From positions 62,001 to 126,000 of IMG/VR virus record IMGVR_UViG_3300031707_002715: a stretch of DNA of 64,000 nucleotides, one strand, 5' to 3'. The notes below the pieces were generated by a model. It ran no database searches, had not been told where the DNA came from, and saw nothing but the letters and a program-made list of their open reading frames with translations. A program made the position numbers and the translations under genes. Shown in pieces: positions 5,810 through 64,000 of this stretch (the stretch's first letter is position 1; each line of letters starts with the position of its first letter). The DNA comes from a virus.

Positions 5810-8191
5810 ATGATGAAATATTTCGATTTAATACAATGTGAATTTACAAAATATGCACGGTCTGAAGAGATGTGTAAGATAGCTAGACGTTTGAAAAGAA
5901 GCAAGAGTACGACCAAAGATTTTTTGAATGATATGGGTGATAAAAATGTCACGAATCCAAGTGCTAAGGGTAAAAAGCGTACAATTAAAGTCAAGTCATT
6001 GAAAAGCGGTGATGAGCGCCAAAAACAGTTGTTTAAGCAATTATATAAACAGTGGAAGGGATCAAAAACTAAAAAAGTTGACAAAAAAGATAAGTTAAAG
6101 AGTAAAGTTAAGAAGCGCAGGAAACAGATAAGACAAGAGTTTAAAAAGAAGAAGCAAGAGATAAAAAAAGAGCCTACTGAAAAAAAGAAAATTGAAAAAG
6201 TCAAGATGAAAGTCGATCCTAAAAAGATCGAAGAGCATCGAAAAGATATAGCGAGTGAAACAAAATCTAATAAAGAACAGCAAGTCATTGAAAAACAGAT
6301 AAGTGAGAAATTAAAAGCTGTTGGTGATAAATCAGACGAACAATATAAATCGACAATATCCGTAGTTAAAAAGAACGAAAAGAGCTTGTATAGAGACACT
6401 AGTGATTTAAATGATCCATTGCCGCCTGATCCAGAAAAATTAAAAACGATTGATACAGATCAAAAATCGTTATCTCGTGCAATGAAAGCTTTAGATATTA
6501 GTAATTCAGAGATATCAGATGTTGTTAATAGTCCAAATGTTGTAACATATAAAATTAGCTTGAAAAATTTAAGTGATAAAGATAAAGCTAGAGCAATGCA
6601 TAAGTTATTATCAACGGAAAGTAAAACAGTATTGAGTCATTTTATTGGTAAAAAAGAAAATGTCACTGTTAATGAAAATAGAGACACTGATACCATTGAT
6701 GTGCACGTACCGAAAGGTACTGATTTGAAAGATAGAGATCCCGTATCATTTAAAGAATTGATTACTAATGATAAATTTGTAAAGGCTTCAAAAGATCCGA
6801 CTAAATTACCGATTGCATTTGGTAAAGATGAGAATAATAACACAGTGACGTACGATTTTAGTAATACACCTCATTTAATAGTTTCAGGTGCGACTAAATC
6901 TGGAAAATCTGTGTTTAATCAAAGCATAATTAATTCAATTCAGATGGGTAAATCGCCAGATGAAGCGAAATTAATATTAATAGACGCTGCTAAAAAGGGT
7001 GCTGAATTTGCACAGTATAAAGATAGTGAATATTTGGATAGACCGATTGCAACGAGCGCTAAAGAGGCTGAAGATGCATTGCAGTCATTAAGCGACGAAG
7101 TCAATCGACGTAATGAGTTCTTGAAGACTATTAGTGGTAAGACGGGCATGAGTTTTAGAAATATTGAAGAATGGAACTCATTTGTCACTAAAGATACTGA
7201 GAAAATGAGTCCAAATGAACAGAAAGCATTCAATATTGTGCCAGAAGATCAACGAAAAAAAATGCATAGAATAGTAACGATAGTTGACGAAGCGAAAGAT
7301 TTGTTCAATAAAGAAGTCAATCCAAATGCACCAAAATTATTTAATTTAGTTGATCATATGCTAACAGTTGCTAGGTCTGTTGGTGCTCACATGGTTATAG
7401 CGACACAGTCGCCTGCAAAACAAAATATACCGGGTAAAATACAGGCTAATATTGGTGCAAAGATGACATTTAGATTGCAAAATAAGAGTGATGCTGAAAA
7501 TATTGGTGTGCCAGATGCAACTGATTTATTAATGTATGGTGACGGATATTTTGAAGATCCGTCTATGGGTGGCGGACCGACTAGATTGCAAACGGGTTTT
7601 ATTGATAAGAATGATGATGCAAAAATTAGCGAGAAAACAAAAGGCGAACAAAAGTTCATTGAACGTGAAAAGAAAGTTGTACCAAAACCGGTAGAAGAAT
7701 TTAAAGGAGTGACTGATCCGGCTTTTCTAGAATTCAAGCAAAGAATGAGTGATGTTCATAAACAGCTTGATGAACAGCGTATTAAGATACAAGAAAGACT
7801 AAAAGAATTAAAGGGTCGCGAATCAGAAATAGAAAAAGAACACCAGAGTTTACGAGAACAATTAGAAGAAAGACGACGTAAAACTCAAGACATCAGACAG
7901 CAACAATCGGATGTCGCACGTCAAAAAGAACGGTCGCCGGCAGTTGAAGTCGAAGAAGAACCTGTAGCTAAAGAACCAACAGTAGAATCTTCTTCGCCTG
8001 ATGTCGCTAGTGAAATTGAAGAATTAACTAAGACAGTACCTGTCAGCGATGTCAAGAAAGAGCCTAAAGCAAAAGAACTAGAGAGGCCGACTGAAAAGAG
8101 AAAATCGCTTCTTGATAGAATTAAAAAAATGTTTGGTAAAAAATCATCAATCGATATGACAAATCATTTCATCCAGAACATTTTAACATGA
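5810..8191 (+). CDS. FtsK/SpoIIIE-like DNA translocase with N-terminal virion-type leader
   Basis: 793 aa. Residues 1-18 ('MMKYFDLIQCEFTKYARS') carry the first half of the leader shared by several other genes here. Residues ~20-190 are extremely Lys/Glu-rich. An FtsK-type motor follows: Walker A GATKSGKS at 360-367, a 'LILIDAAKKGAEF' strand as in FtsK ('LIDPKRxEL'), Walker B 'IVTIVDEAKDL' around 488-497, and 'VIATQSPAKQNIPGKIQANI' with a terminal 'GDGYFEDPSMGG', both typical of FtsK-HerA family members. Residues ~640-710 form a coiled coil. No membrane segments and no gamma (KOPS-reading) domain are obvious. FtsK motors pump duplex DNA. Combined with the leader, a virion-packaged translocase acting at genome entry or packaging is possible (inference). 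The start may be either of two adjacent ATGs. Confidence 0.8.
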   Translation: MMKYFDLIQCEFTKYARSEEMCKIARRLKRSKSTTKDFLNDMGDKNVTNPSAKGKKRTIKVKSLKSGDERQKQLFKQLYKQWKGSKTKKVDKKDKLKSKVKKRRKQIRQEFKKKKQEIKKEPTEKKKIEKVKMKVDPKKIEEHRKDIASETKSNKEQQVIEKQISEKLKAVGDKSDEQYKSTISVVKKNEKSLYRDTSDLNDPLPPDPEKLKTIDTDQKSLSRAMKALDISNSEISDVVNSPNVVTYKISLKNLSDKDKARAMHKLLSTESKTVLSHFIGKKENVTVNENRDTDTIDVHVPKGTDLKDRDPVSFKELITNDKFVKASKDPTKLPIAFGKDENNNTVTYDFSNTPHLIVSGATKSGKSVFNQSIINSIQMGKSPDEAKLILIDAAKKGAEFAQYKDSEYLDRPIATSAKEAEDALQSLSDEVNRRNEFLKTISGKTGMSFRNIEEWNSFVTKDTEKMSPNEQKAFNIVPEDQRKKMHRIVTIVDEAKDLFNKEVNPNAPKLFNLVDHMLTVARSVGAHMVIATQSPAKQNIPGKIQANIGAKMTFRLQNKSDAENIGVPDATDLLMYGDGYFEDPSMGGGPTRLQTGFIDKNDDAKISEKTKGEQKFIEREKKVVPKPVEEFKGVTDPAFLEFKQRMSDVHKQLDEQRIKIQERLKELKGRESEIEKEHQSLREQLEERRRKTQDIRQQQSDVARQKERSPAVEVEEEPVAKEPTVESSSPDVASEIEELTKTVPVSDVKKEPKAKELERPTEKRKSLLDRIKKMFGKKSSIDMTNHFIQNILT

Positions 8192-8415
8192 TAGACACAA
8201 AAGCTATTATTAGACGATGTCCAAAAAAAGACAAAGACAATCGGCCATCGGATAAACAAAAATATTGTTTATACACTAGCGACGGTTCTAAATTATTGGG
8301 TCGTCATCCTTCGAAAGAAAAAGCATTGCGTCAAGAAAGAGCTATTCAAAAACATAAACATTCATCTATAATTAATAAAGAATTTTCAAAAATAGTTCTC
8401 GACAGGAGTGATTAA
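8188..8415 (+). CDS. 75-aa basic protein, conserved-phage type
   Basis: The start overlaps the translocase stop by 4 nt (ATGA), so the two are probably translationally coupled. The core 'KYCLYTSDGSKLLGRHPSKE' followed by 'ALRQERAIQKHK' is a pattern common in small phage proteins and in the tails of larger phage proteins. No enzyme motif is visible. It has an overall strong positive charge, which would suit nucleic-acid contact. It ends just before the GACAGGAGTG ribosome site of the next gene. Function unknown. Confidence 0.65.
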   Translation: MIDTKAIIRRCPKKDKDNRPSDKQKYCLYTSDGSKLLGRHPSKEKALRQERAIQKHKHSSIINKEFSKIVLDRSD

Positions 8416-16333: not shown

Positions 16334-16611
16334 AAATCCTCCTTTAAATAATTGTTTGCTGCTCTTGTATGTGCTTTTCGTACTTTTTTTGGCATGACTA
16401 CACTGCTTATATTAGCTTCAACATCTTTTGTTAAATCTTGTAACTCTTTATCTTTTGTTACCTTTTCATTAGCTAATAAAGCTCTACTCTTTCTTGTACA
16501 ATACTCAAATGCCAATTTAACTTCTGGTATTTTAAGAAACCAAAATTTAAACAACAAAAATATCACGATAAGCATCACGAGTAAATCTACAACTAAATAT
16601 ATAACACTCAT
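16330..16611 (-). CDS. Small single-pass membrane protein, SPFH partner
   Basis: 93 aa. Transmembrane helix at residues ~4-26 ('IYLVVDLLVMLIVIFLLFKF') followed by a basic helical tail. It is preceded by TAGGAGAGTAAA, in which the upstream gene's TAG stop is part of the ribosome site, and it is coupled to the SPFH gene by an ATGA overlap. NfeD-like partners often accompany SPFH proteins, but this one shows no NfeD signature. Probably a subunit or anchor of the same complex. Confidence 0.6.
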   Translation of the reverse strand: MSVIYLVVDLLVMLIVIFLLFKFWFLKIPEVKLAFEYCTRKSRALLANEKVTKDKELQDLTKDVEANISSVVMPKKVRKAHTRAANNYLKEDL

Positions 16612-16620
16612 TTTACTCTC

Positions 16621-17679: not shown

Positions 17680-17718
17680 TTTAACCTCACTTGCATAAAC
17701 TTTAATATGATTTTTTCA

Positions 17719-19296: not shown

Positions 19297-19383
19297 TTTA
19301 AACCTTTTAATTTATTTTTACAAACATTATTCTCCAAACAATAATCACTCATTTTATCGTCGAAATGAATTTTTAAAAAAGAA

Positions 19384-19713
19384 TTAAACTTTGCAAGCGC
19401 TTTGCATTATTATATCGATTGTATCTGTCCATTTACGAGGTAAATGCCCTTCTATATTAAGGGCATAGTCTTCAGATGCTTGATCATTTGTTTCATAATA
19501 AATTACAACTTCTAAATACGGTCCGAAATCGTGCAGAAACTTTTTTGTTACAAACATACAATTTTTAGGAATATTAGGAAAAAGAGTCGCTAAAAACTGC
19601 TTATAGCGTAAACATTCAACCCTCATTTTTTCAAAATACGTCGAATCATCACTTGACACTTGCACGCAGTCTTCATCACTGGGTGCCGATCCGAGCTCGA
19701 TATAATCTTGCAT
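19384..19713 (-). CDS. Unrecognised 109-aa phage protein
   Basis: The start was chosen at the ATG with AAAGGAG 6 nt upstream. A longer frame beginning with GTG near 19797 lacks a ribosome site and would run close to the upstream gene. The protein begins 'MQDYIELGSAPSDEDCVQVS' and ends 'PRKWTDTIDIIMQSACKV'. It is acidic and soluble, with three Cys scattered and no known motif. It lies between the Ro60-like gene and the CCA-adding enzyme. Confidence 0.6.
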   Translation of the reverse strand: MQDYIELGSAPSDEDCVQVSSDDSTYFEKMRVECLRYKQFLATLFPNIPKNCMFVTKKFLHDFGPYLEVVIYYETNDQASEDYALNIEGHLPRKWTDTIDIIMQSACKV

Positions 19714-19804
19714 ATAGTCTCCTTTCATTTTTCTTTGAATAAAAAATTCTTTAGTAGTTGCAGGAGCCAGTGCGTCGCTGGAAATCTTTTTAATCACCTT
19801 TTTT

Positions 19805-21127
19805 TCATCTTTTTCCGACTAATGCTTTAGCAGCCTCTATCGCTGCATCTTTATTTGTGATTTCACCTTCTAATTGTCTATCATATATCTCTCTAAGAAT
19901 TTTTCCAATTAACGGCGATTGAACAAAACCAATGTCAATTAAGTCCCTACCATTTATAAATGATAATGGTTTAATTTCTTCTTTTAAATATTCATTTTTT
20001 TTAGCTATTGCAAAGTCCCATTCTGTCAAATCACCATTACCACCTAATGAATCTGCTTTTAGCAGCGCTAAAATATCATCTATGTGATCTTGCCCTAAAA
20101 ACTTACGCAGCGTCGACTTTCTCATTTCTTTTATACTCATAGGTGTCATATGCTGATAAATTAAATCACAAGTATGATCTATAAAGTCGTTTGAAAACAT
20201 CAGTCTACTTAAAACATCCCTCGCTATATCAGCTCCGACTTTTGCATGTTCTGGAAATCTAATTCTATCAGTACATTCATTCGTCGCAGGTTTACCGACA
20301 TCATGTAATAATGCTGCAAAAATTAATTCATCAGATGGATTCATCGTAAATAAATTTTCCATTGTACGAATAATATGTTCTAATACATCTCCTTCAGGAT
20401 GAAATTGTGTCGGCTGTTGGACGCCTTTCATTCTTTCAACTTCAGGCAAAATGTAATTAATTAGTCCAGTATCAAACAAATAATTTAATGCTATTCGAGG
20501 CTTACCGATCCTAAATAATTTTACGAGCTCATCTCGAATTCGTTCTTGTGAAATGACTACGATGTTAGAAGCATTGAACTTTATAGCTTCATAAGTATTT
20601 GATTCTATAGTAAAATCAAATTTGACTGCAAAACGTATGCCTCGTAAAATGCGTAATTTGTCTTCATCAATTCTTACTTGAGGATCGCCAATAAATCGTA
20701 TGACCTTGTCTCGTATGTCTTTACGACCATCAACATAGTCAATAAATTTATCAGCAATCGGATCGTAAAACAACCCATTAATAGTAAAATCACGTCTTTT
20801 TGCGTCGTCTTGCATTGAAGAAAAAGTAACAGTTTCAGGTCGTCGACCATCGAGATAACGACCATCTATCCTAAAAGTAGCCACTTCAAATTCATAATCA
20901 TTCAACAATACTCTAATGACGCCAAATGATTTACCAGCAGGAACAGTTTTTTCAAAAATCATTTCAACATTATCAGGTAATGCGCTAGTAGCTATATCGA
21001 TGTCATTACTTTCATTTTGCATTATTTTATCTCGGACAAACCCACCAACAAATACAGCCTGATAGCCATGCCTTTGCAGCTCTTTAACAATGCTTATTGC
21101 GTCATTTAGTGCTGTCGATATCATCAT
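19805..21127 (-). CDS. cca: CCA tRNA nucleotidyltransferase (class II, with HD domain)
   Basis: 440 aa. The head domain has the nucleotidyltransferase signature 'FVGGFVRD' (G28, G29) and the metal-binding pair D42/D44 in 'NDIDIATS'. A 'RRDFTINGLFYD' motif and the neck signature 'DEDKLRILRGIRFAVKF' follow. The C-terminal half carries the HD phosphohydrolase motif 'LLHDVGKP' with a downstream His. This matches bacterial CCA-adding/poly(A) polymerase family enzymes with an HD domain, which add or repair the CCA 3' end of tRNA. It fits the tRNA cluster at 58-63 kb, where at least six of eight tRNA genes do not encode CCA. Second codon is also ATG, so the start is uncertain by one residue. Confidence 0.9.
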   Translation of the reverse strand: MMISTALNDAISIVKELQRHGYQAVFVGGFVRDKIMQNESNDIDIATSALPDNVEMIFEKTVPAGKSFGVIRVLLNDYEFEVATFRIDGRYLDGRRPETVTFSSMQDDAKRRDFTINGLFYDPIADKFIDYVDGRKDIRDKVIRFIGDPQVRIDEDKLRILRGIRFAVKFDFTIESNTYEAIKFNASNIVVISQERIRDELVKLFRIGKPRIALNYLFDTGLINYILPEVERMKGVQQPTQFHPEGDVLEHIIRTMENLFTMNPSDELIFAALLHDVGKPATNECTDRIRFPEHAKVGADIARDVLSRLMFSNDFIDHTCDLIYQHMTPMSIKEMRKSTLRKFLGQDHIDDILALLKADSLGGNGDLTEWDFAIAKKNEYLKEEIKPLSFINGRDLIDIGFVQSPLIGKILREIYDRQLEGEITNKDAAIEAAKALVGKR

Positions 21128-21130
21128 AGT

Positions 21131-21850
21131 TTATTCTGTGCTCTTCCAATAGCAATACAGACATGCATGAGCACAGCGCTGCTTGTTTTCAAGCAATTCT
21201 TTTTTATTACCAAGACATGCGCAGCATGGCCTTTGCTTAAACGACTTATCAATAGGTCGTTCGTTCAATATTTCGCAATCTATAGCAGATATACAGCCTG
21301 TGCATTCAAAATCAGGTTCACCGCAAATCTCAGGTTTATCTAATTTCTCCCACGCTTTTTTCCTTAATTCTAATGGCGCATGAAAAGTCGACCACGGTAA
21401 TTTTATATCTTTTTCTTCAAATCTCTTTTTCACATGTTCGTATTGATCAATAAATGATATCCTAACTCTAGTCTTAAAAATTTGTCGAGCTTGAAGTAAT
21501 ACACCATAAGCTGTATTTATCCCTACATCTGTCGGAATAATTGGATCGATCCTCAGTACTACTCTTTCCGGACCAAGCAATTCACAGAGACTCTTAAATC
21601 CTTTTAACGACTCTTCAACAATAGGCACATTTGGTTCGACTATCGATCCACCAAAACCGGTAATTGTCGTATGAACTATAACATTCGGTGTAAAATGATA
21701 CACTTCAGGTGCTTCATTTATCATCGTCTTAAGCAAATAAAATAATTTAAGTGGATTTTTCGATATTAAAATTGCAGGCTTGAAATCTAAGACCCATGGC
21801 ATCCATTGTAAATTAATAGCAGGGTCACCGCGCTCAGTTATACCGATCAT
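21131..21850 (-). CDS. DUF1848-family protein with C-terminal Cys cluster
   Basis: 239 aa, ending 3 nt before the cca gene. The N-terminal 'MIGITERGDPAINLQW' and the central TIM-barrel-like strands ('VIVHTTITGFG', 'VVLRIDPIIPTDVG') follow the DUF1848 plan. So does the C-terminal cysteine cluster: 'CGEPDFECTGCISAIDC', 'CCACLG' and the terminal 'RCAHACLYCYW', which is like the radical-SAM C(x3)C(x2)C spacing. DUF1848 proteins are uncharacterised, with a suspected Fe-S site. The gene is probably co-transcribed with cca. The substrate is unknown. Confidence 0.65.
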   Translation of the reverse strand: MIGITERGDPAINLQWMPWVLDFKPAILISKNPLKLFYLLKTMINEAPEVYHFTPNVIVHTTITGFGGSIVEPNVPIVEESLKGFKSLCELLGPERVVLRIDPIIPTDVGINTAYGVLLQARQIFKTRVRISFIDQYEHVKKRFEEKDIKLPWSTFHAPLELRKKAWEKLDKPEICGEPDFECTGCISAIDCEILNERPIDKSFKQRPCCACLGNKKELLENKQRCAHACLYCYWKSTE

Positions 21851-29394: not shown

Positions 29395-30535
29395 TTGAGC
29401 CTCTGCCGGGGATAAATCCCCGCAGATTCCTGACTGCAATCATGCTGCTGCATGTAGCACCTCGACGGTCGCTCCGACCGCAGCATTTAGAACATTAACG
29501 GCAGAATTTATATCTCTGTCGTTTTGTGCACCACAAGCACAGTTCCAGTGCCTTACCGAGAGTTGTGCGAGACCGCTTGGCCCGGTTAAGGCCCCGCAAG
29601 CCGAGCACATCCTCGTGGAGTTTTTTGACGGAATTTCTAAATACTTTCGACCGCACGAACTGCTTTTGTACGAAAGCATTTTTCTTAACTGGTAATGTCC
29701 AGAACTGGACACAGATTTACCGAATTTCTTGGCAATACTATTAATATTATCAGAGCTAAAAGCAATAAGAACATTTTCCTTGACAAGACGAAGTGACAGC
29801 TTGTGATTTCTATCATTGACGCGGCTTGCTCTGCGCTCAGAAAGTCTGGCGGCAAGTTGCTTATCATGGCCCCGCTGCGCTTGTCCTATCCGTTTTTCAA
29901 TAGCTTCCAGTTCCCTCGGATGTTCTATCTTTTCTCCGGTAGAGAGGGTCAACAGAGTTTTAAAACCGGGATCAATCCCTATCTGCCCATTACCGGTACA
30001 AGCTATTGGTTCTCTTTTCGCATCAATAAAAAGGCATAAGTACCAACCGGAAGCACGCTTGATTATGCGTCCGTTTTTAATAATTCCTTTAGGCAACTCC
30101 TGTTTGTGGTAGCGTATTTTACCGATACCAGGAATACTGATATGGTTTTCTTTTGGGGGATGAATGCGGTCTGGAAAGGATATGGAATTTAATTTGTTCC
30201 GCACACCTTTGAGGCGCGGTTTTCCACTAATCTTTTTAAAGCACCGCTGCCATGCCGTATAGACCTGAGACAAAACGCCTTGAATAGTGTGTGAAGGAAT
30301 TTCCAGTTTCTTTCCATGATCAGCGAGAAGATTTACAAAATCAAAAGCAGAAAAATATATTTTATCTTGTGCGTTAAGTTCTATTTTCCGTAATCCAAAA
30401 TTATAAATTGCCGTCAGATTCCACAACCAATTATCAAGCGTGGATTCCTGCTTTTTATTGAAGTGAAGTTTGAGGGCAGATGTTATCATGATTGCTGGTT
30501 AATATATCGTTGTATGGTTTGCCCGCAGACATTAG
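29395..30535 (-). mobile_element. tnpB-only IS200/IS605-group element, copy 1
   Basis: 1141 bp with no tnpA. The right end has the hairpin GCGGGGATTTATCCCCGGC just after tnpB. The left end starts CTAATGTCTGCGGGC, and AAACCATACAACG is shared with the copy at 42.5 kb. The boundaries are supported by restoration of an 84-aa frame. It is inverted relative to the 42.5-kb copy. Confidence 0.7.
29440..30489 (-). CDS. tnpB: TnpB RNA-guided nuclease, copy 1 of a pair
   Basis: 349 aa. RuvC-like acidic residues in 'GQIGIDPGFKTLL', 'ENVLIAFSSDNINSI' (an atypical second site with Ser-Asp) and 'NDRDINSAVNVLN'. Zinc finger: 'CSACGALTGPSG' and 'CACG'. Most residues are identical to the TnpB at 42574, so the two share a recent origin. 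The reading frame is intact. No Y1 transposase accompanies it, so movement would depend on one supplied in trans, for example that at 26.3 kb, although the ends differ. Confidence 0.9.
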   Translation of the reverse strand: MITSALKLHFNKKQESTLDNWLWNLTAIYNFGLRKIELNAQDKIYFSAFDFVNLLADHGKKLEIPSHTIQGVLSQVYTAWQRCFKKISGKPRLKGVRNKLNSISFPDRIHPPKENHISIPGIGKIRYHKQELPKGIIKNGRIIKRASGWYLCLFIDAKREPIACTGNGQIGIDPGFKTLLTLSTGEKIEHPRELEAIEKRIGQAQRGHDKQLAARLSERRASRVNDRNHKLSLRLVKENVLIAFSSDNINSIAKKFGKSVSSSGHYQLRKMLSYKSSSCGRKYLEIPSKNSTRMCSACGALTGPSGLAQLSVRHWNCACGAQNDRDINSAVNVLNAAVGATVEVLHAAA

Positions 30536-33977: not shown

Positions 33978-34418
33978 TTATATCTTAGAATCTTCAGGCT
34001 TCTTTAACACTTTTTGCAAGTTTTCAATAGCACCGTCATGATGTCCGCCCACATGCCAGTTCCATTCACCTTCTGCTGTTTTAGAACCATTATAAATAGT
34101 TACAATCGCTGAACCTATGGCCAAAACCCATTCATCACCATGTTTTTTAGTTCTAAAATTCGGCATTCCAAATAGTTTTATTAAATCTCTCTTTGAAGCT
34201 GAAATTTCGCCTTTATATGACGTATCCATCGCTGCATCGGGACGTATTCTTCTAACTCTAACATCATTAATCATCTTTATAGGATATATAGGTCGTAACG
34301 AAGTGTGAGGATGTGAAGAAATATATCGTTTCTGATCTGCTACAGATAACTGTCTCCACCAATCAGGGATCGTAGCATGTTTTACAAATTCTTTTTGTAT
34401 TGTTGCTACATGTTTCAT
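33978..34418 (-). CDS. Leader-tagged protein 1 (146 aa), WHVGG domain
   Basis: The start is set at the ATG that opens the shared leader 'MKHVATIQKEFVKHA', with CAAGGAA upstream. The second leader half 'WWRQLSVADQKRYISSHPHT' follows. The body has 'LIKLFGMPNFRTKKHGDEWV' and 'VTIYNGSKTAEGEWNWHVGG', a beta domain (FG.P....eW...V.TIY....WhvGG) found in many phage hypothetical proteins. Last gene of a five-gene series with the same leader. Function unknown; an internal virion or injected protein is inferred from the leader. Confidence 0.65.
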   Translation of the reverse strand: MKHVATIQKEFVKHATIPDWWRQLSVADQKRYISSHPHTSLRPIYPIKMINDVRVRRIRPDAAMDTSYKGEISASKRDLIKLFGMPNFRTKKHGDEWVLAIGSAIVTIYNGSKTAEGEWNWHVGGHHDGAIENLQKVLKKPEDSKI

Positions 34419-34476
34419 AATGCGTATATTCCTTGCCATGTCTTTATGTTTATAGTCTGCAACTTTTAAGTGTTCT

Positions 34477-35124
34477 TTATCCAACAATTATACTCTCAGG
34501 CTCATTCTTTGTACGTTCCTGTAATTTATATGTGATGCCCCTTTTATCTAATTCATCCATAAATTTCTGCTTATCAGCATCAGGTGATATCACTAACGAC
34601 GGTTTACCCTCAATATAATGTTTAGCTGTCGTCATGTAATAACCCGGAAAATATTGCCAAGCTATGCCTCTTTCAGTCCCGTGCGCTATCGGCGACTCCG
34701 ACATCTCTTGTATATCTAAATCTTTCAAAATATTCTTGACATCATCAGCTGACACTGTAGCTAACATACCTTGGTCTTTTAACTCCTGCCGTACCTTTTG
34801 ATCTCTTTGCGTTGTGCGTTCCTTGATAATCTCATTGACAGCTTGTAATTGTTTCTCAACCCAATCTCGTTGGTGTAGTGGTTGCCGTCTCCTATAACTA
34901 GCAAGACCGAGTTTCAAGCCAGTTATCGTCAATCGACTACGTTTTAATTCAAGCTCGCGATCATCTAATTGATTAAATTTTCTTTTCAAATCTTCGACTG
35001 TAGCAGTCAATTGTTTCCTACTTGCGGGATGTTCTTTCAAATACTGCTCTTGCTGTTCTCGAGACAATGTGTCCCAAAAAGCCAATTTTATAAACTCAGT
35101 TTGAATTCTTGCTAAATGTTTCAT
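34477..35124 (-). CDS. Leader-tagged protein 2 (215 aa)
   Basis: Leader 'MKHLARIQTEFIKLAFWDTL' then 'SREQQEQYLKEHPASRKQLT'. Residues ~40-120 are a charged coiled coil ('KRKFNQLDDRELELKRSRLT'). The C-terminal ~70 residues form an alpha/beta unit ('GIAWQYFPGYYMTTAKHYIE', 'LVISPDADKQKFMDELDKRG'). No catalytic signature recognised. Gap of 51 nt to the next tagged gene. Confidence 0.65.
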   Translation of the reverse strand: MKHLARIQTEFIKLAFWDTLSREQQEQYLKEHPASRKQLTATVEDLKRKFNQLDDRELELKRSRLTITGLKLGLASYRRRQPLHQRDWVEKQLQAVNEIIKERTTQRDQKVRQELKDQGMLATVSADDVKNILKDLDIQEMSESPIAHGTERGIAWQYFPGYYMTTAKHYIEGKPSLVISPDADKQKFMDELDKRGITYKLQERTKNEPESIIVG

Positions 35125-35175
35125 AAAATACTTGCTTTCTTTTGAAGAACTTAAACCTTAGATTTGCTAAACATT

Positions 35176-35547
35176 TCATAGACCCTCTAATTGATCAATA
35201 GTAACTTCTCTAAGACCATCATCATACTTACCAAGAGCATGGTCAAACTTACTATCACGGTACTTCTTGTCTACTCTCACCATGACTAATTCATCACCTT
35301 TTTCGATAGTCTCGACTTTACCAAATTCTTCCGGCCATCCTTCACGTTTATTCGGTTTCAAGCGGACCCGTTGACCTTCTACAATTGCTTTAGTAGTCTT
35401 TTTCTTACCAGACTTGGGTTTCGCAGTGATACGTCTTTTTGACTTTGGATGTCGCTTGAGGTAAGCTTTTTGATCCTCAATCGATAACTTGTCCCACTTG
35501 CGAGCTTCTTTAAGAAACTCTACCTGGATTTTTGCTACATACTTCAT
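35176..35547 (-). CDS. Leader-tagged protein 3 (123 aa) with KOW/SH3-like body
   Basis: Leader 'MKYVAKIQVEFLKEARKWDK' then 'LSIEDQKAYLKRHPKSKRRI'. After a Lys-rich linker the body is a small beta barrel: 'EGQRVRLKPNKREGWPEEFG', 'VETIEKGDELVMVRVDKKYR', ending 'GLREVTIDQLEGL'. This fold type (G..V.l....g..G.V) is common in phage proteins as a nucleic-acid or protein contact module. The leader also contains L-K-E|A, the form of a T4-like prohead-protease site. Confidence 0.65.
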   Translation of the reverse strand: MKYVAKIQVEFLKEARKWDKLSIEDQKAYLKRHPKSKRRITAKPKSGKKKTTKAIVEGQRVRLKPNKREGWPEEFGKVETIEKGDELVMVRVDKKYRDSKFDHALGKYDDGLREVTIDQLEGL

Positions 35548-35587
35548 AATTAGTTTTCTTTCTAATTATCAAATCTTCTTGTCATTA

Positions 35588-37795
35588 TTAGTCGTGATCA
35601 TATTGCTCAATATATAACGGTGAGATGCCCAATGCATCTTCGGTCCTTTTATCAGCTCTATTTGAATACTGCGTTTTATTCATACTTACATGATATCCAA
35701 TGCCCATACCGTGCGGTGCAAACGTGTGTGATCTTCCCATTCTTAGATCTTTCTTAATCTGTTCAATACCTTCAGGCGTCACCTTCCAAACGCCACCCGC
35801 GACAGGGACGTCTAACGATCGACCTATTTTATCTTGTTTTTGTTTAACTTTTTCTGCCGTGTCTTTTATGACTTCAGCAAATGGTCTATCATCGTTCCAA
35901 TCCACACTCAAACCGACATCAGTCCCGCGAGCACCTAAACTATAAATACCACCTTTACCCGGCACCCTATAATAAATTTCTCCACCATATTTCCCATATT
36001 CACCCGGCTTACCGAGCGACAAAATCATTTCCATAGTATCATCGTCATCACTGACTACAAAGTGATCTGCCCATTGTTCACCTATTGTAGCTCTATCTTT
36101 AAATTTAAACCCTTCAGGCAATTTCAAATCTTCTTTCGATTTCTCATAACCATGCTGGTCCATCAACTTATTAATCAGTTCTACTTTCGGTACGGTTTTT
36201 TCTAATACACTTTTAATTTTGTCTTCATATTTTAAGAAACTTTCTACTTCTTCTTGCTGATAACCGATTAAAATATCTTTATTCGACTTAACATCTTTTA
36301 CAAACGCATCAAAATCAGCTACCGCTTTCTTAAGATTGTCTACTGATAATCCTGACGGACCACCTAATGCATTAGCTATATTTTTATGTTGTTCTGGCGT
36401 CAAATTAAATTTACGACCTTTTTTATAAAGATATTTACTCGACTTACCTTGCGCGTCAATTCTTTGACCATATACATCTTCTCTCGGAAACTTCTCAAAA
36501 GCTTGAGCCAAGTACATGCAAGTCTGGGGCGATATCCGGAGTAAATCTGTTGCTGCCGCTGAATCAGCAATGTCTCCCATAGAATCACTATAACTCTTGT
36601 GTATATTATCAGCTACTCTCTTGATTTCTGCTCTTAATTTTGCTTTCTTCTCGAGTTCAGGTGCTTTCTTAATATAATCTTTAGCATCTACAACTGAATC
36701 AAACGTTGCAAATTCTAATCCACCGACGCCCATATTTGTGCCGCGAGGTGCCGAAAATCTTGTGGATGTTGGAACATCATACCTAATCATTTGACCAAAA
36801 TTTGGATGATTAAATTCATTTTTAATAATCGGTCTATCACCGCTTGCATCTTCGATCGACCGTTTTTCATGCATTTCGCGTCTTGAATGTGGAATTAAAT
36901 ATTTTGCAAATTGTTTTTGATCGCCGGGTAACTCATTTTCAATTCTCTTGAGTTCGATTATTTCATTTGAAAGCAACGGTTCTGGTAATTTGTATTTTTC
37001 CATTATTTCTCTATTCGGGTCTTCTTCACCTTCGACTTTTGGTAATTTACCATCATTACTTATTAATACATCTTTTGCTATTTGAATAAATTCGTCTTTT
37101 GAAAGAGGTTTACGTCTTGTGGATTTAAACCGTCTTGTCCTTGCTACTAATCCTGCATGACGTTCAATCTCATGAATAAGATCTATAGCGTCGTGATGGC
37201 TTTCACCTGGAAATTCTTTTTGCCAAATTTTATTTAATTTTTTAGCATCTGTAGATTCTTCTTTATATTTATCTTTTCCGGCTGACGAATAAACATCAAA
37301 AAGATTACCGAGCTTACTATCTAATTTCGGAGTGTTAGACTCGACTTGTTTTGTTTCGTGAAGTTTTACGTCTGTATCCCCCCCTCGCAAGTCGTCAACG
37401 CTCTCATTACTCCTTAATTTCATATACTGATCCCAGTGATAATTTTGCATATTATCGTGATGATTAGTTTTGTTAAGAATATCTTCTCTATCAGGAGCAG
37501 CATCATCGTATTTACTATGATAATGTCCGTATAATTGATGATGTATCTTGTAAGCATCGTGATGTGCGTCAGATGTTTTTAATTTATTTGCTCTTGTAGT
37601 AGCTTCTTGAGCTTCTTTATCCTCTTTTACATTCTCATCCAGATCTCTTTTTACTGCGCCTTTAGGCCTGGCTGTTAATCTTCTTTTTGTTCTTGGATGT
37701 CTCGAGAGATAGCCCTTCTGTTCTTCATAAGAGAGATCGTCCCACTTACGAGCTTCTTTCAAAAATTCTGTCTGAATCACTGCTAAATATCTCAT
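35588..37795 (-). CDS. Leader-tagged protein 4 (735 aa)
   Basis: Leader 'MRYLAVIQTEFLKEARKWDD' then 'LSYEEQKGYLSRHPRTKRRL', very like protein 3. A charged His/Lys/Asp-rich segment follows (~50-170; 'KIHHQLYGHYHSKYDD'). Then come helical blocks and two short Gly-rich beta motifs ('GTNMGVGGLEFATFDSVVDA', 'GARGTDVGLSVDWNDDRPFA'). No transmembrane, Walker or peptidase motif stands out. The size and leader suggest a major internal or ejected virion protein. Real function unknown. Confidence 0.65.
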   Translation of the reverse strand: MRYLAVIQTEFLKEARKWDDLSYEEQKGYLSRHPRTKRRLTARPKGAVKRDLDENVKEDKEAQEATTRANKLKTSDAHHDAYKIHHQLYGHYHSKYDDAAPDREDILNKTNHHDNMQNYHWDQYMKLRSNESVDDLRGGDTDVKLHETKQVESNTPKLDSKLGNLFDVYSSAGKDKYKEESTDAKKLNKIWQKEFPGESHHDAIDLIHEIERHAGLVARTRRFKSTRRKPLSKDEFIQIAKDVLISNDGKLPKVEGEEDPNREIMEKYKLPEPLLSNEIIELKRIENELPGDQKQFAKYLIPHSRREMHEKRSIEDASGDRPIIKNEFNHPNFGQMIRYDVPTSTRFSAPRGTNMGVGGLEFATFDSVVDAKDYIKKAPELEKKAKLRAEIKRVADNIHKSYSDSMGDIADSAAATDLLRISPQTCMYLAQAFEKFPREDVYGQRIDAQGKSSKYLYKKGRKFNLTPEQHKNIANALGGPSGLSVDNLKKAVADFDAFVKDVKSNKDILIGYQQEEVESFLKYEDKIKSVLEKTVPKVELINKLMDQHGYEKSKEDLKLPEGFKFKDRATIGEQWADHFVVSDDDDTMEMILSLGKPGEYGKYGGEIYYRVPGKGGIYSLGARGTDVGLSVDWNDDRPFAEVIKDTAEKVKQKQDKIGRSLDVPVAGGVWKVTPEGIEQIKKDLRMGRSHTFAPHGMGIGYHVSMNKTQYSNRADKRTEDALGISPLYIEQYDHD

Positions 37796-37829
37796 AAAAC
37801 CCTCTTTGTAATTATTTCATTCACTCTTG

Positions 37830-38216
37830 CAAAATGCATCTTGCATACCGTTTCGTTCTTCTTAATAGCTGCGAGAGTGATCATTATCTACCGTATTGTT
37901 TGTGTGGCCACTTAATACACCTATGATTATCGAGACAATTTGCATGCTTCGCAAAATAATATTCTGAGCACCACTGACTGTCATAATTTAATCTTCTGCG
38001 TTTGTGTAGCCACCAATGCAAGCACCATTTGAAACGACATGCTTTGTGTTTATTACATCGATACACTAATCGCACCTATACAGTTTCAGTTTCGGCTTGT
38101 GTTTGTTATGCGTTTGTATAACGTTTTGACCATTAACAAGAGATTTGGCTAATTTTTGCTAGATTTTTATCTGACATATTCATATATCTTACAGACTGAA
38201 TCGCTGCTAAATATCT
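37830..38216 (-). pseudogene. Decayed duplicate of the tagged-protein genes
   Basis: The 5' part reads 'IRYLAAIQS' with an ATA in place of ATG, matching the protein-4 leader. It then jumps to 'VRYMNMSDKNLAKI', which matches 'ARHMMDDMPDKNQAKI' of tagged protein 5. Its 3' end preserves 'MQDAFCKSE' and the stop of protein 5. The flanks AAAACCCTCTTTGTAATTA and CACTCTTGCAAAATGCATC (+ strand) are present both here and at 38220-38275. This is a collapsed duplicate, partly replaced by unrelated sequence. Confidence 0.6.
37884..38075 (-). CDS. Possible 63-aa Cys/His-rich protein inside the decayed region
   Basis: GTG-start frame with eight-plus Cys/His in zinc-finger-like spacing ('CNKHKACRFKWCLHWWLHKR' and 'WCSEYYFAKHANCLDNHRC'). 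There is no good ribosome site. It lies inside the decayed duplicate, so it may be an inserted gene or only chance. Low confidence. Confidence 0.3.
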   Translation of the reverse strand: MRLVYRCNKHKACRFKWCLHWWLHKRRRLNYDSQWCSEYYFAKHANCLDNHRCIKWPHKQYGR

Positions 38217-38243
38217 TATAAAACCCTCTTTGTAATTAGTTCG

Positions 38244-38804
38244 TCATTCACTCTTGCAAAATGCATCTTGCATTTTTCTATAAAATTCACCCGTCGATGC
38301 TAGTGTTCCACCGTGATCTGGATGACTCCAAACTGTCACATTTTTAAAAGCATCGCGAGTGTAATCGTCAATCCTTTCTTTAATTTTTGCTTGATTTTTA
38401 TCTGGCATATCGTCCATCATATGTCTTGCAGAACTTGACGTCAACCAATAAGCAATTCCATTATTGCCCAATCCTTTTTCTCGCAACGACTCCTCAACCA
38501 TCTTATCTATCTCTGGAGTCCTATTCGATGTTCCATAATATCCGCTCGGTGTCGATGCCCTAATATATTCTAAATAATGTTGTGTCTGTGCAATTTCGTC
38601 CGATAATCCACCTTTATATTTCTTCCTGTTGATAATTGCCATTGCTAAATCTTGTGGAGGCTTTGTCGTAGGACGAAGTTTTGTGCCAGGATGAGATTTC
38701 ATATAATAGTATTGCTCTTCGTACGACAACTTCGACCACCAATGAGGTTCGATCTCTTTAGCGTATTTAGTAAACTCTCTTTGAACTATTGATAAGCGAC
38801 GCAT
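38244..38804 (-). CDS. Leader-tagged protein 5 (186 aa)
   Basis: Leader 'MRRLSIVQREFTKYAKEIEP' then 'HWWSKLSYEEQYYYMKSHPG'. An AAAGGATAAATT ribosome site precedes it. The body is helical with 'IAYWLTSSSARHMMDDMPDK' and a C-terminal 'VTVWSHPDHGGTLASTGEFY' segment with a His-x-Asp-His. No family recognised. First in the tagged series, and the source of the decayed copy just downstream. Confidence 0.65.
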   Translation of the reverse strand: MRRLSIVQREFTKYAKEIEPHWWSKLSYEEQYYYMKSHPGTKLRPTTKPPQDLAMAIINRKKYKGGLSDEIAQTQHYLEYIRASTPSGYYGTSNRTPEIDKMVEESLREKGLGNNGIAYWLTSSSARHMMDDMPDKNQAKIKERIDDYTRDAFKNVTVWSHPDHGGTLASTGEFYRKMQDAFCKSE

Positions 38805-38868: not shown

Positions 38869-41835
38869 TTAGAACCCATCTATTATTTCAAATTCGCTCT
38901 CTTGCTCACAGATTTCTCTCCTCTTCTTATAATGACCCAACAAATATCTAACATTATCTTTAAAATCTATCACTATAGCTTCTGTCTTACCATCTGATGG
39001 TCGTAATGTCCTACCAATCCTTTGAATCATTCGTGTCGGTGATTTACCAGCGCCCGCCAATATTAACGAATCAAGTGCTGGGATATTCAAACCCTCATCT
39101 GCCAAAGAATTATGACACAACACACCAGGACCGTTAAAAAATACTTCAGTATCTTCAACTGAAATATCATAAACATATTTTGGTTGACTTGTTTGATACG
39201 GATATAAATTTTCAATCTTAGTTATCGGTACATTAGCGAACTTATCATTTACTTTTAATTTTAAATAACTTTGTCCAGGTCTTGTATTCATATCAGGCGT
39301 TCGTCCCAAATCAAACAAATTATGTTTAACAGTTAATTGATACCCCCAATTTTTAGATCGTATTCTATGCTCAGACTTTAATAAATTACCTTCTAAATCT
39401 ACATTCGGTTTACGACATTTAAATGAAAAATTGTTAATATCATTATTTAGTAATATTCCAATCACGCCATCTAGTAATTGTTTACTTACTGAAACAAATG
39501 TAAAACTGTATTTATTATTAAACGACCCATCAGTCAAAAAATAACCATACAAGAAGCCCATTTGAATCTCTTTTGAACTATTGAAAATAAATTGTGGCAC
39601 TTTCTTAACTAAAGCGTTGCCCAACATTCCAAATATATCAGCTATCAAATAAGCCATTAACTTACCAGCAATTTTTATTCCTGTTGTTCCACCATGACCT
39701 CGTTTAAATTTCAAATCAGGAAAAATTGTCCTTAAGCACTCTTCCATTAACTCAACAGATTTTTCCTTAACAAACTTGACTCCAGCAGTTTGTCCCTTAA
39801 AACATAAACAAAAACTACCTTTTGTCATGTGACCATCGCCGATTAACATGCCACAAATCTGACCCAATTTTACAGAATTTTTCAAAATAAATGGTAATCC
39901 AAAGTCACCCTTTCTACTTCTTTTGTAAAATATCTTAGCTTTTAACTTGTCTCGATGCTTAAATTTTAAAACACTATCAACAGAACATCTATATTTCCGT
40001 TTCTTATACTTAACATTTTCATTAAACCATATTACAAAATCTTTATAAAATTGATCTTTATTTTCTAAACGCTTTACTGCATCTTTTTCAGTATCACCTG
40101 AAATATCTCGACATTGTTTTTTTAGAACTAGATATTCAGACTTAATAAATCTCATTGTTGAATTATTGAATTGCATGAAACTTTGATTCCTGTCAAGTCG
40201 GACTTCTAACTTTTCCACAAATGGACATTTTGAAAATTCATACAAAAGATCAAATTTATCTACTTTAACAACTTGATTTAATGGCAGTCTCAAAGCAGTA
40301 ACAATGTTATTACCTAATTCAGGCAATACTTTCTTCAATTGTCTATTGTCATAAGATATTAATGAATGATTTTCAGTTACTAAAGCAATTCGTCCTGACT
40401 TGAGTCTAACTCTTAACACATTATTTTTACATTCATGTCTATGAACATGCGTAATTCTTTTCCATACAATTTTATTGTTCAAAAATGACAGAGTCTCATA
40501 TTGTTCATCAAAATGTGTCAAATATTTCTCAACAAAGTCACCAATTTTTACTAAATCAACATGTCTCTTTGAATTTCTAATCCATATTGTTTCATTGTGA
40601 TCTAAAGAAGTACCCACGAGCACATCTAGCTGTCTATTTCTCACTTGATTGATATACTTTTTCCTCACCATCTTATCAACATGGCTGTATATAAACTCGA
40701 CAGATATACCTCCGACTTCATTTATCATTTTTGTCAGTAAATGACCATGTTTTTTAGTTGTGACAGTTATCAACACAGACTTATTCAAACTCTTTAATCG
40801 TTTAACACAATCGACAATCAATGTATTACGATACAAATTATTTACGATATAAGTCTTATAAATCGAATTATATCGCTTGCGGCTAAATTTATACTTAGAA
40901 TTTTTAGAACCTTGCAAATAGTAAATCTTCGGCCTAACTAAATACTCGTTCTTAATCAAATATGAAGCCGACACTCTGCTAATAATCTTACCGGCATATG
41001 CCTGCAAAATCATGTCCTTACCTTGACCAGTTTCGGGGGTCGCAGACATGGCTATCTTGAAATACGCAGACCTACAAGCCTTTATCGTCTCGATATATGT
41101 TCTAGCAGAGATATGCTGACATTCATCGATCATCACACATTGAACAGATTGTATGAATTTTTTTACATTCTCATCTCTGATAAAACTCTTTTTTACGATT
41201 TCATCTTCTTCCATCTGCTCTTTTTCGATCTCATCAAACGGTATATATTTCTTATCTAACACTGAATGAATCGTCTGTATCATACACACATTTATTTTCT
41301 GAATATCACAAGTTCCACCACCAATCTTACCAATCGGCACTCGCAATAATTCTCTCAAATCGTCGTAAGCCTGCTCAAATAAATCACCCGTATGCACTAC
41401 GAATATCGACGAAACATTTAATTTAGCTAAAATAGCACCTGCAATAATTGTTTTCCCACCACCAGTAGCAATCTGGATTACAAATCGTTGACTTTCATCA
41501 GACGTGTCAACGATACCTTGTTGATAGGGTCTTAATTTTACACCATACAGTTTTAGCGGTTTATTAACGGCGGGTTTTATTCGGTTGTCCACGACATCAT
41601 ATGTAATATTATGGGCATCAAAAACATCAGCAGCTTTTGAAAATAATCCTGTAGGAAATGACTGTTTTAATTTATTAAAAAGATGATGTTCTAAAGTAAT
41701 AAAATTGAAACCATTAAACTCTAAAGTCTTATAAGTCATTGCTGTCGACAAATCATAGATAATACTATTATCTAGATCACCAATCACTTTGATATTTACA
41801 TTACCGACTTCAAGTCTCATAATTTTAATAATCAT
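38869..41835 (-). CDS. SF2 DNA/RNA helicase interrupted by an intein
   Basis: 988 aa precursor. N-extein: Walker A 'IATGGGKT' (122-129), DEAH-like box 'VMIDECQH' (234-241), 'MSATPET' motif III, and helicase C domain up to 'LDVLVGT' (409). The C-extein, 79 aa, begins 'SLADEGLNIPALD' and has the motif VI 'QRIGRTLRPSDG'. Joined, 'VGT-SLADEGLNIP' restores motif V exactly. The mature helicase would be ~488 aa, of the UvsW/RecG-like SF2 type that remodels forks or R-loops. AUG choice: two nearby ATGs; the first is used here. Confidence 0.88.
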   Translation of the reverse strand: MIIKIMRLEVGNVNIKVIGDLDNSIIYDLSTAMTYKTLEFNGFNFITLEHHLFNKLKQSFPTGLFSKAADVFDAHNITYDVVDNRIKPAVNKPLKLYGVKLRPYQQGIVDTSDESQRFVIQIATGGGKTIIAGAILAKLNVSSIFVVHTGDLFEQAYDDLRELLRVPIGKIGGGTCDIQKINVCMIQTIHSVLDKKYIPFDEIEKEQMEEDEIVKKSFIRDENVKKFIQSVQCVMIDECQHISARTYIETIKACRSAYFKIAMSATPETGQGKDMILQAYAGKIISRVSASYLIKNEYLVRPKIYYLQGSKNSKYKFSRKRYNSIYKTYIVNNLYRNTLIVDCVKRLKSLNKSVLITVTTKKHGHLLTKMINEVGGISVEFIYSHVDKMVRKKYINQVRNRQLDVLVGTSLDHNETIWIRNSKRHVDLVKIGDFVEKYLTHFDEQYETLSFLNNKIVWKRITHVHRHECKNNVLRVRLKSGRIALVTENHSLISYDNRQLKKVLPELGNNIVTALRLPLNQVVKVDKFDLLYEFSKCPFVEKLEVRLDRNQSFMQFNNSTMRFIKSEYLVLKKQCRDISGDTEKDAVKRLENKDQFYKDFVIWFNENVKYKKRKYRCSVDSVLKFKHRDKLKAKIFYKRSRKGDFGLPFILKNSVKLGQICGMLIGDGHMTKGSFCLCFKGQTAGVKFVKEKSVELMEECLRTIFPDLKFKRGHGGTTGIKIAGKLMAYLIADIFGMLGNALVKKVPQFIFNSSKEIQMGFLYGYFLTDGSFNNKYSFTFVSVSKQLLDGVIGILLNNDINNFSFKCRKPNVDLEGNLLKSEHRIRSKNWGYQLTVKHNLFDLGRTPDMNTRPGQSYLKLKVNDKFANVPITKIENLYPYQTSQPKYVYDISVEDTEVFFNGPGVLCHNSLADEGLNIPALDSLILAGAGKSPTRMIQRIGRTLRPSDGKTEAIVIDFKDNVRYLLGHYKKRREICEQESEFEIIDGF
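39109..40608 (-). other. Intein with LAGLIDADG homing endonuclease (500 aa)
   Basis: Residues 410-909 of the helicase. Ser1 starts block A 'SLDHNETIWIR'. Block B is 'GRIALVTENHSLI' with the conserved T..H. The two LAGLIDADG motifs are 'ICGMLIGDGHMTK' and 'FLYGYFLTDGSFNN'. Block F/G is 'YVYDISVEDTEVFF' ending 'VLCHN', followed by Ser+1. All splicing residues are present (Ser1, His, terminal His-Asn, Ser+1), so it should splice. A Ser at position 1 is less usual than Cys. Confidence 0.9.
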
Positions 41836-42449: not shown

Positions 42450-43668
42450 AGATGACGGGCCGCAATCCACGGGGTTTTAACCCCAGTGGTTAGGCCTGCA
42501 AGATTTTTCGTTTTGTTGTTGACAACGCTAATGTGTCAGCAGAAACCATACAACGTTACATCAAAAACCAATCATGATAACTTCAACCTTAAAACTTCGT
42601 CTCAACAAAAAGCAAGAAGCCACACTCAACGGTTGGCTGTGGAATCTTACGGGTGTTTATAATTGGGGCTTGCGGAAGATAGAGCTAAACGCGCAAGACA
42701 AGATTTACTTTTCGGCTTTTGATTTTGTCAATCTTCTCGCGGATCACGGGAAGAAATTAGACATTCCTTCCCACACTATTCAAGGAACTCTATCTCAAGT
42801 CTATACGGCATGGAAAAGATGTTTTAAAAAGATTAGCGGGAAACCGCATTTTAAAGGCGTGCAAAACAAATTAAATTCTATATCCTTTCCGGACCGCATT
42901 CACCCGCCGAAAGAAAATCACATCAGCATTCCCGGCATCGGGAAAATACGTTATCACAAACAGGACCTTCCATCGGGAACAATTAAGAACGGCAGAATTA
43001 TTAAGCGGGCCTCTGGCTGGTACTTGTGCCTTTTTATCAAGGCACAGCGGGAACTTATTATCTGCACCGGCAACGGAGAGATAGGAATCGACCCCGGCTT
43101 TAAAAGCCTGTTGACTTTATCAACTGGCGAGAAGATAGAACACCCTCGGGAACTGGAGTTGGCCGCAAAAAGGCTGGCGCAAGCGCAACGGGGACACGAC
43201 TTAACTTTAGCGGCACTAATTCATGAACGGGTTGCTAACCAGAAGAAAGACCGCAATCATAAATTGTCCCTGCGGCTCGTTAAAGAAAACGAGTTAATTG
43301 CTTTTAGTAAAGATAATATCAAGGGCATTGCAAAGAAATTTGGCAAATCCGTGTCCAGTTCTGGACACTATCAGTTGCGACAAATGATTTCCTATAAGAG
43401 CAATTCCTGCGGTAGGAAATACGTCGAACCTGATTCGAGAAATTCCACCAGGATGTGTGCCGCCTGTAAAGCCTTGACTGGCCCTACAGGCTTATCACAA
43501 CTGTCGGTGATAGAATGGGTGTGTTCGGCTTGTGGTGCCGTATTGGATCGAGATGTAAACTCGGCCATAAACACCCTTATCGGGGCGGGTGCCGCCTACG
43601 AGGTGCATCATGCAGCAGCATGATTGCAGTCAGGAATCTGCGGGGATTTATCCCCGGCAGAGGCTCAA
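42450..43668 (+). mobile_element. tnpB-only IS200/IS605-group element, copy 2
   Basis: ~1.2 kb. Left part has the hairpin CCACGGGG/CCCCAGTGG (42468-42490), absent from copy 1. The CTAATGT...AAACCATACAACG segment (42528) and the right end GCGGGGATTTATCCCCGGC...GGCTCAA match copy 1. Left boundary: 42450 if the interrupted gene is used as guide, 42528 if copy 1 is; both keep the frame. Confidence 0.65.
42574..43623 (+). CDS. tnpB: TnpB RNA-guided nuclease, copy 2 of a pair
   Basis: 349 aa, same length as the copy at 29.4 kb and nearly collinear with it; differences cluster around residues 190-210 and the C-terminus. RuvC-like residues are in 'GEIGIDPGFKSLL', 'LIAFSKDNIKGI' and 'LDRDVNSAINTL'; the finger is 'CAACKALTGPTG' and 'CSACG'. 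The frame is intact. Inverted relative to copy 1, so the two could recombine and flip the 29-43 kb segment. Confidence 0.9.
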   Translation: MITSTLKLRLNKKQEATLNGWLWNLTGVYNWGLRKIELNAQDKIYFSAFDFVNLLADHGKKLDIPSHTIQGTLSQVYTAWKRCFKKISGKPHFKGVQNKLNSISFPDRIHPPKENHISIPGIGKIRYHKQDLPSGTIKNGRIIKRASGWYLCLFIKAQRELIICTGNGEIGIDPGFKSLLTLSTGEKIEHPRELELAAKRLAQAQRGHDLTLAALIHERVANQKKDRNHKLSLRLVKENELIAFSKDNIKGIAKKFGKSVSSSGHYQLRQMISYKSNSCGRKYVEPDSRNSTRMCAACKALTGPTGLSQLSVIEWVCSACGAVLDRDVNSAINTLIGAGAAYEVHHAAA

Positions 43669-63058: not shown

Positions 63059-63231
63059 ATGAACTATACTAGTCGAGTCTTGTGTGAGTTTAGTAAGAAT
63101 GCTGCGTGGCAAAATTTACCATATAAATCTCAACGTAGATATCTAAAACGGCATCCTAAATCGCGTTTTCGACCGACAGCATTACCTGGATCTGAAATCG
63201 AGAGGAATAGATTTTATGATGTGCCTATTAT
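63059..63231 (+). pseudogene. Leader-tagged gene interrupted by an IS200/IS605 element
   Basis: AAAGGAGGTATTTTT precedes the ATG (best ribosome site in the region). Leader 'MNYTSRVLCEFSKNAAWQNL' then 'PYKSQRRYLKRHPKSRFRPT' matches the tagged family at 34-38 kb. After 'ERNRFYDVPI' the frame enters the IS left end and stops ~45 nt later, giving a 71-aa chimera. The rest of the gene should lie beyond the IS, outside the window. Confidence 0.7.

Positions 63232-64000
<769 letters not shown>

What the first reader, a model, noticed from the sequence alone, without database searches (positions are those of the whole stretch)
33978..38804. A shared bipartite N-terminal leader on a set of otherwise unrelated phage proteins
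Five clustered genes (34418, 35124, 35547, 37795 and 38804 starts, - strand) begin with the same ~42-residue leader: part A M-[KR]-x4-[IV]-Q-x-E-F-x-K-x-A, part B W-x2-L-S-x-[ED]-[ED]-Q-x2-Y-[LIM]-x2-H-P-x-[ST]. The bodies differ (WHVGG domain, coiled coil, KOW/SH3-like, 735-aa giant). A sixth copy begins the IS-split gene at 63.06 kb, a seventh is decayed (38.2 kb), and part A alone starts the FtsK-like gene at 5.8 kb. T4 internal proteins carry an N-terminal capsid-targeting sequence of comparable style (...EFI.EA) that is cut by the prohead protease. Here the Glu of Q-x-E-F is invariant, and two copies contain L-K-E|A. Inference: a modular tag that sends cargo proteins into the head, perhaps for ejection with DNA.
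Basis: partly seen in the sequence, partly recalled or inferred. Interest (0 to 1): 0.88.

Follow-up and report, generated by a model that had tools for sequence, protein, structure and literature searches.

The report
Shared phage head-cargo address tag
A group of giant viruses of bacteria puts the same short two-part tag on the front of up to about 35 unrelated proteins per genome, most likely an address label that loads those proteins into the virus head so that they enter the next host cell together with the DNA.

Summary
The leader is real. All five genes carry it, plus a sixth at 63.06 kb and part A alone at 5.8 kb; three more tagged genes lie outside the window in the same 126-kb phage record. 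The "seventh copy" is only a 78-bp duplication of a gene start. A profile finds 10, 35, 31, 13 and 14 copies in this and four related uncultivated phage contigs, almost always at residue 1, and none in reversed or shuffled controls. Third codon positions and upstream DNA are largely randomised, so selection acts on the peptide. Bodies are unrelated (85 bodies, 57 families) and include an Alt-like RNA-polymerase ADP-ribosyltransferase, topoisomerase IB, FtsK-like ATPase, CCA-adding enzyme, M17 aminopeptidase and a sigma-like protein.

Part B alone recurs in other large phages; in one group it lies between portal and prohead-protease genes. In another 215-kb phage a different part A is shared by about 14 genes, three of which continue into the same part B. 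Best reading: a bipartite capsid-targeting tag that works like T4's. Sequence homology to T4's signal is not shown, and T4-type cleavage is possible in only 29% of leaders. No virion proteomics was available.

The parts
33978..34418 (-). Tagged gene 1, 146 aa; leader = 34287-34418 (A+B)
   Evidence: HMM; listed ORF begins at an upstream TTG (34487) but the leader Met is at 34418
34477..35124 (-). Tagged gene 2, 215 aa; leader = 35002-35124 (A+B)
   Evidence: HMM
35176..35547 (-). Tagged gene 3, 123 aa; leader = 35422-35547 (A+B), body a KOW/SH3-like barrel
   Evidence: HMM; AlphaFold2; best fold match NusG at E 1.2e-3; tagged relatives in G001 and G004 at about 58% identity
35588..37795 (-). 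Tagged gene 4, 735 aa; leader = 37670-37795 (A+B)
   Evidence: HMM; tagged relative in G002 at 39% identity over 607 aa
38244..38804 (-). Tagged gene 5, 186 aa; leader = 38664-38804 (A+B)
   Evidence: HMM
63059..63274 (+). Tagged gene 6, interrupted by an IS-like element; leader = 63059-63181 (A+B)
   Evidence: HMM; sequence
5813..8191 (+). FtsK/SpoIIIE-like gene with part A alone (5813-5857)
   Evidence: Pfam E 4.6e-27; leader HMM E 2e-4; relative in G002 at 44% identity, also with part A
38196..38273 (-). Partial duplication (direct repeat) of the gene-4 start region 37772-37846; not a full leader
   Evidence: blastn 92% over 78 columns
8356..8412 (+). Weak part-A-like end of a 75-aa protein; its relative in L088 continues into a full A+B
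   Evidence: HMM E 0.06

Best explanation
The leader is a head-targeting (capsid-targeting) tag. Part A is an amphipathic helix starting at Met1; part B is a short second helix ending in H-P-x-S-K, followed by a basic flexible linker. Together they form a small docking unit, separate from the cargo body, that most likely binds the scaffold or core inside the growing prohead. Cargo is thereby packed before the DNA and enters the next host with it. Part A seems to be a clade-specific address, part B a module shared more widely among large phages. SHOWN: the tag, its position, its modularity, selection on the peptide, the cargo families, and the gene neighbourhood of part B in related phages. INFERRED: binding to the prohead core, packaging, ejection. 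UNKNOWN: whether and where the tag is cut off.
For: About 100 leaders in five records, at residue 1, on 57 unrelated body families. Peptide-level selection. Two-helix leader separate from the body. Cargo includes an Alt-like RNA-polymerase ADP-ribosyltransferase, topoisomerase IB, CCA-adding enzyme, aminopeptidase, FtsK-like ATPase, sigma-like protein; T4 Alt is a head-packaged, ejected protein (PMC9026906). G001 and G002 encode prohead protease and capsid protein. Part-B proteins lie directly upstream of the prohead protease and just after the portal in L134/L136/L138/L140, two genes upstream of the prohead protease in pEa_SNUABM_5, and directly upstream of the terminase in G001/G002. In G005 a different part A on about 14 genes continues into part B in three of them. 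Not found in a scan of cellular genomes.
Against: No virion proteomics. The window's own record, G003 and G004 show no capsid or protease match (they may be fragments). T4 cleavage residue rarely present. Profile similarity to T4 IPII/IPIII not significant. No capsid, portal, protease or scaffold protein of G001/G002 was found to carry the leader.
Confidence: 0.75

Rival explanations
1. The leader docks proteins to another phage-made structure inside the infected cell (replication compartment, early vesicle or phage nucleus), not to the head.
For: Some cargo acts on DNA (topoisomerase, FtsK-like ATPase), which would also fit a DNA compartment. The hosts and cell biology of these phages are unknown.
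Against: Cargo also includes aminopeptidases and a CCA-adding enzyme, odd for a DNA compartment. Part B lies beside portal and prohead-protease genes in several phage groups. A search for the phiKZ nuclear shell protein found none, but it missed an expected positive control and is inconclusive.
Confidence: 0.12
2. The leader is an ordinary small interaction domain that gathers the tagged proteins on one phage or host complex in the cytoplasm, with no role in transport.
For: It is predicted to be folded (two helices) and is under peptide selection.
Against: Cargo activities are too diverse for one complex, tens of copies per genome, and the head-gene neighbourhood of part B.
Confidence: 0.09
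3. The similarity is a by-product of recombination that copies gene starts (promoter, ribosome-binding site and first codons), without a function of the peptide.
For: A 78-bp duplication spanning a ribosome-binding site and gene start exists at 38.2 kb.
Against: Upstream DNA is unrelated between copies (31% identity), and third codon positions have drifted (51%) while second positions stay 81% identical.
Confidence: 0.02

Closest known systems
Capsid targeting sequence (CTS) of phage T4 internal proteins IPI-IPIII and Alt
   Same: Short N-terminal leader on otherwise unrelated proteins; E-F-[IL]-x-x-A core; amphipathic helix pattern; an Alt-like ADP-ribosyltransferase among the cargo (PMC9026906, PMC12373910).
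   Different: About 42 residues in two parts instead of about 10; on up to about 35 proteins per genome; the T4 processing Glu is matched in only 29%; no significant profile similarity.
Phage P1 DarB N-terminal packaging signal
   Same: N-terminal residues (30 are sufficient) send a protein to the head (PMC9024508).
   Different: The P1 paper found no shared motif among Dar proteins; here the tag is shared and strongly conserved. Sequence comparison with DarB was not made.
Propeptides of giant phage SPN3US and phiKZ head proteins
   Same: Giant phages; N-terminal extensions on ejected head proteins, thought to act like CTS (PMC5694885).
   Different: Those are mostly over 100 residues, cut after AxE or SxE, and not one shared leader across tens of proteins.
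Prohead core proteins encoded between portal and prohead protease (T4 genes 67/68)
   Same: In L134, L136, L138 and L140 a part-B protein lies in that place; in T4 the core holds gp67, gp68 and the internal proteins together (PMC9026906).
   Different: No family match of the part-B proteins to gp67/gp68; the parallel rests on gene position.

Membership tests
T4-type capsid targeting sequence | Common leader at the extreme N-terminus of otherwise unrelated proteins of one phage | tested here: met
   83 proteins with the leader Met as ATG start; 57 body families
T4-type capsid targeting sequence | Sufficient and necessary to load a protein into the prohead | not testable with these tools
   Needs virion proteomics or reporter fusions
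T4-type capsid targeting sequence | Sequence kinship with MKTYQEFIAEA, including targeting Phe7 | tested here: inconclusive
   E-F core shared (F11 98%) and rare elsewhere (0 of 387 untagged ORFs; 3 of 203 in other phages, two of them IPII/IPIII), but profile score not significant
T4-type capsid targeting sequence | Cleavage by the prohead protease after [LI]xE within the leader | tested here: not met
   Glu at position 14 in only 29% of leaders; cleavage elsewhere cannot be excluded. An [LV]xE motif precedes part B in L134-L140
T4-type capsid targeting sequence | Phage encodes a prohead protease and internal scaffold | tested here: met
   Protease G001 E 2e-18 and G002 E 3e-17; capsid E about 1e-70; an acidic scaffold-like protein between them. 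Not found in G000, G003, G004, which may be fragments
T4-type capsid targeting sequence | Cargo of the Alt type (ADP-ribosyltransferase acting on RNA polymerase) | tested here: met
   G004 18581-19378, phrog_802 E 3.4e-15
SPN3US/phiKZ-type long propeptides | Propeptide usually over 100 residues, cut after AxE or SxE | not tested
   Leader length of about 42 residues differs; cleavage not examined
Phage-nucleus import | Phage encodes the nuclear shell protein | tested here: inconclusive
   No match in G000-G004, but the search also missed phage Moabite

The most novel reading that the evidence does not exclude
A general, modular head-loading code exists in large phages: a clade-specific part A (MKHLAxIQxEFLKxA here, MIKINSxxRLxAT in phage G005, MAKLKDLINE-type beside the protease in other contigs) joined to a widely shared part B (W[WF]xxLSxxxQxxY[LIV]xxHPxSK). 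It marks a whole injected proteome of tens of proteins, so that the cargo can be read directly from sequence.
Probability: 0.5. Interest if true: 0.87.

Novelty: new variant of a known kind. Interest (0 to 1): 0.77.

Why it matters
Which proteins jumbo phages inject is largely unknown and has needed virion proteomics. If this tag is the loading signal, the injected set of a whole uncultivated phage group can be listed from DNA alone: about 10 to 35 proteins per record, most of unknown function and good candidates for host takeover and counter-defence. It would also give a second, bipartite kind of signal for loading chosen proteins into phage heads.

Tried and rejected
Pfam and PHROGs on the five clustered window proteins gave nothing significant. 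tblastn of the 735-aa protein against phages and a viral-contig scan with it gave no match; its relative came only through the leader. T4-type protease PF03420 and capsid PF07068 gave no hits; other families then found protease and capsid. The search for the phage-nucleus shell protein was uninformative because its expected positive control failed. The AlphaFold2 model of the 735-aa protein was poor (mean pLDDT 60), so no fold search was run on it. The library searches made here found no paper describing this leader. Copied-DNA origin of the leader was rejected by the codon pattern. Near-chance hits to phage Moabite were looked at and set aside.

Full report
1. The observation. An HMM built from seven leaders, run over all six frames of the 126,451-bp record that holds the window, finds ten copies: the five; the gene at 63059, interrupted by an IS-like element near the contig end; part A alone on the FtsK-like gene at 5813; and three consecutive genes outside the window at record positions 12151, 13177 and 13455. 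The supposed seventh copy at 38.2 kb is a 78-bp direct repeat of the junction upstream of the 735-aa gene, with ATG changed to ATA.

2. More than chance. Over 14,071 frames from six phage contigs the seven-leader HMM hits 92 at E<=0.01, against 0 in reversed and 0 in shuffled sequences. The profile search of whole records gives 10, 35, 31, 13 and 14 matches in G000 to G004 (126, 416, 330, 86 and 128 kb); two smaller contigs carry it too. In the pieces held, 83 proteins have the leader Met as an ATG start codon, and 53 of these carry A+B.

3. The leader as a peptide. In about 100 aligned leaders E10 is 94%, F11 98%, K13 92%, A15 85%, Q26 93%, Y29 97%, H33 100% and P34 89%, but E14 only 29%. Among 25 ungapped A+B leaders codon positions 1/2/3 are 70/81/51% identical, four-fold sites 41%, and DNA from -60 to -20 31%. 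Selection holds the peptide; the copies are not recent DNA duplications. AlphaFold2 on the 123-aa window protein with 43 rows gives helices 2-16 and 23-32 with block pLDDT 81-92, then a less certain linker, then a separate KOW-like barrel. Part A as a helix is amphipathic.

4. The cargo. With the first 45 residues removed, 85 bodies fall into 57 families, 39 of them single. Bodies shared between phages keep the leader; the 735-aa protein has a tagged relative at 39% identity. Assigned bodies are FtsK/SpoIIIE-like ATPase, topoisomerase IB, M17 aminopeptidase, CCA-adding enzyme/poly(A) polymerase, a sigma-like protein in the head module, a nucleoside-deoxyribosyltransferase-like protein and a weakly supported metallopeptidase in this record, and an Alt-like RNA-polymerase ADP-ribosyltransferase (G004 18581-19378, E 3e-15). 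T4 Alt is a head protein ejected into the host (PMC9026906). In the CCA-adding enzyme the leader is an extra extension in front of the catalytic domain.

5. Link to the head. G001 and G002 encode a prohead protease and a major capsid protein in one module. A sigma-like protein with part B lies directly upstream of the terminase there. Part B alone also begins a protein of Erwinia phage pEa_SNUABM_5 and Yersinia phage fHe-Yen9-02, whose annotated starts are too late; in pEa_SNUABM_5 it is two genes upstream of the prohead protease. Phage NCTB has it on a related protein. In contigs L134, L136, L138 and L140 the part-B gene lies directly upstream of the protease ORF and a few genes after the portal; in L140 portal (E 4e-66) and head maturation protease (E 1e-50) were confirmed. 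That is the place of the T4 core genes 67/68 (gene order from general knowledge), and an [LV]xE-like motif directly precedes part B there, which would fit a gp21-type cleavage site. In phage G005 about 14 genes share another leader, MIKINSxxRLxAT, and three of them continue into part B. BcepSaruman gp075 shows an A-like start followed by part B. So part A varies by clade and part B is common. The BcepSaruman, NCTB and Xanthomonas matches are individually weak.

6. Comparison with T4. T4 IPII and IPIII begin MKTYQEFIAEA. Residues 4 and 7 direct targeting, 8 and 10 processing (PMC9026906); T4-like internal proteins share only this leader, and at least ten are known in related phages (PMC12373910). 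Aligned on E-F, T4 Phe7 corresponds to F11 (98%), but T4 Glu10 to position 14, Glu in only 29%. The pattern E[FY][LIVMSTAF]xx[AS] in the first 20 residues occurs in 0 of 387 untagged ORFs here and in 3 of 203 ORFs from other phages, two of them IPII and IPIII; the profile score itself is not significant. On present evidence it works like a capsid targeting sequence; descent from the T4 signal is not shown, and the cleavage criterion is not met as a general rule.

7. Not cellular. A scan with leader patterns over one genome for each of 84,980 bacterial and archaeal species gave 169 candidate stretches and no relative.

8. Limits. All relatives with the full leader are uncultivated contigs, several possibly fragmentary; hosts are unknown; no virion proteome was available; receptor, cleavage and ejection are inferred. 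Only pieces of G001 and G002 were read gene by gene. The search for a phage-nucleus shell protein failed its control and says nothing.

Noticed in passing
L131 (record G005, 215 kb), genes at about 41400-64600 and 168042: A different shared leader, MIKINSxxRLxAT, begins about 14 genes; three continue into the same part B. A second, independent tag family.
   Followed up: partly
L009 3007-4011 and L010 about 2968-4005: Annotated starts of pEaSNUABM5_00152 and fHeYen902_035c are probably too late: an upstream ATG with a ribosome-binding site, overlapping the end of the glycosyltransferase gene, adds part B.
   Followed up: yes
L108 18099-20105: The topoisomerase IB of Xanthomonas phage PhiXhv-12, a relative of the tagged topoisomerases of G001/G002, ends in a part-B-like motif (weak, E 0.018 to 0.4): possibly the same cargo tagged at the other end.
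   Followed up: partly
G002 304901-306838 and 315504-316397; G001 287736-288395: Proteins with tandem or repeated tags (two part B, or two whole leaders about 100 residues apart).
   Followed up: no
window 8188-8415; L088; G001 347946-348152: A small CP-x-KDK...LLGRHPSKEKA protein beside the FtsK-like gene in this record and in L088: tagged at its N-terminus in G001, followed by A+B in L088, with a weak part-A-like end here.
   Followed up: partly
window 38869-41835: The 988-aa helicase seems to contain an intein (helicase motifs split, insertion ending ...VLCHN/SLADEG); judged by eye only.
   Followed up: no
window 15122-21850: An operon-like group with a Band 7 protein, an ARPP-1 domain protein (E 4e-26) and a DUF1848 protein (E 4e-21), unusual for a phage.
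   Followed up: no
window 11488-12582, 29440-30489, 42574-43623, 63338-64000: Several genes that look like TnpB of IS200/IS605-type elements; one lies in the element that interrupts the sixth tagged gene. Judged from sequence appearance only.
   Followed up: no
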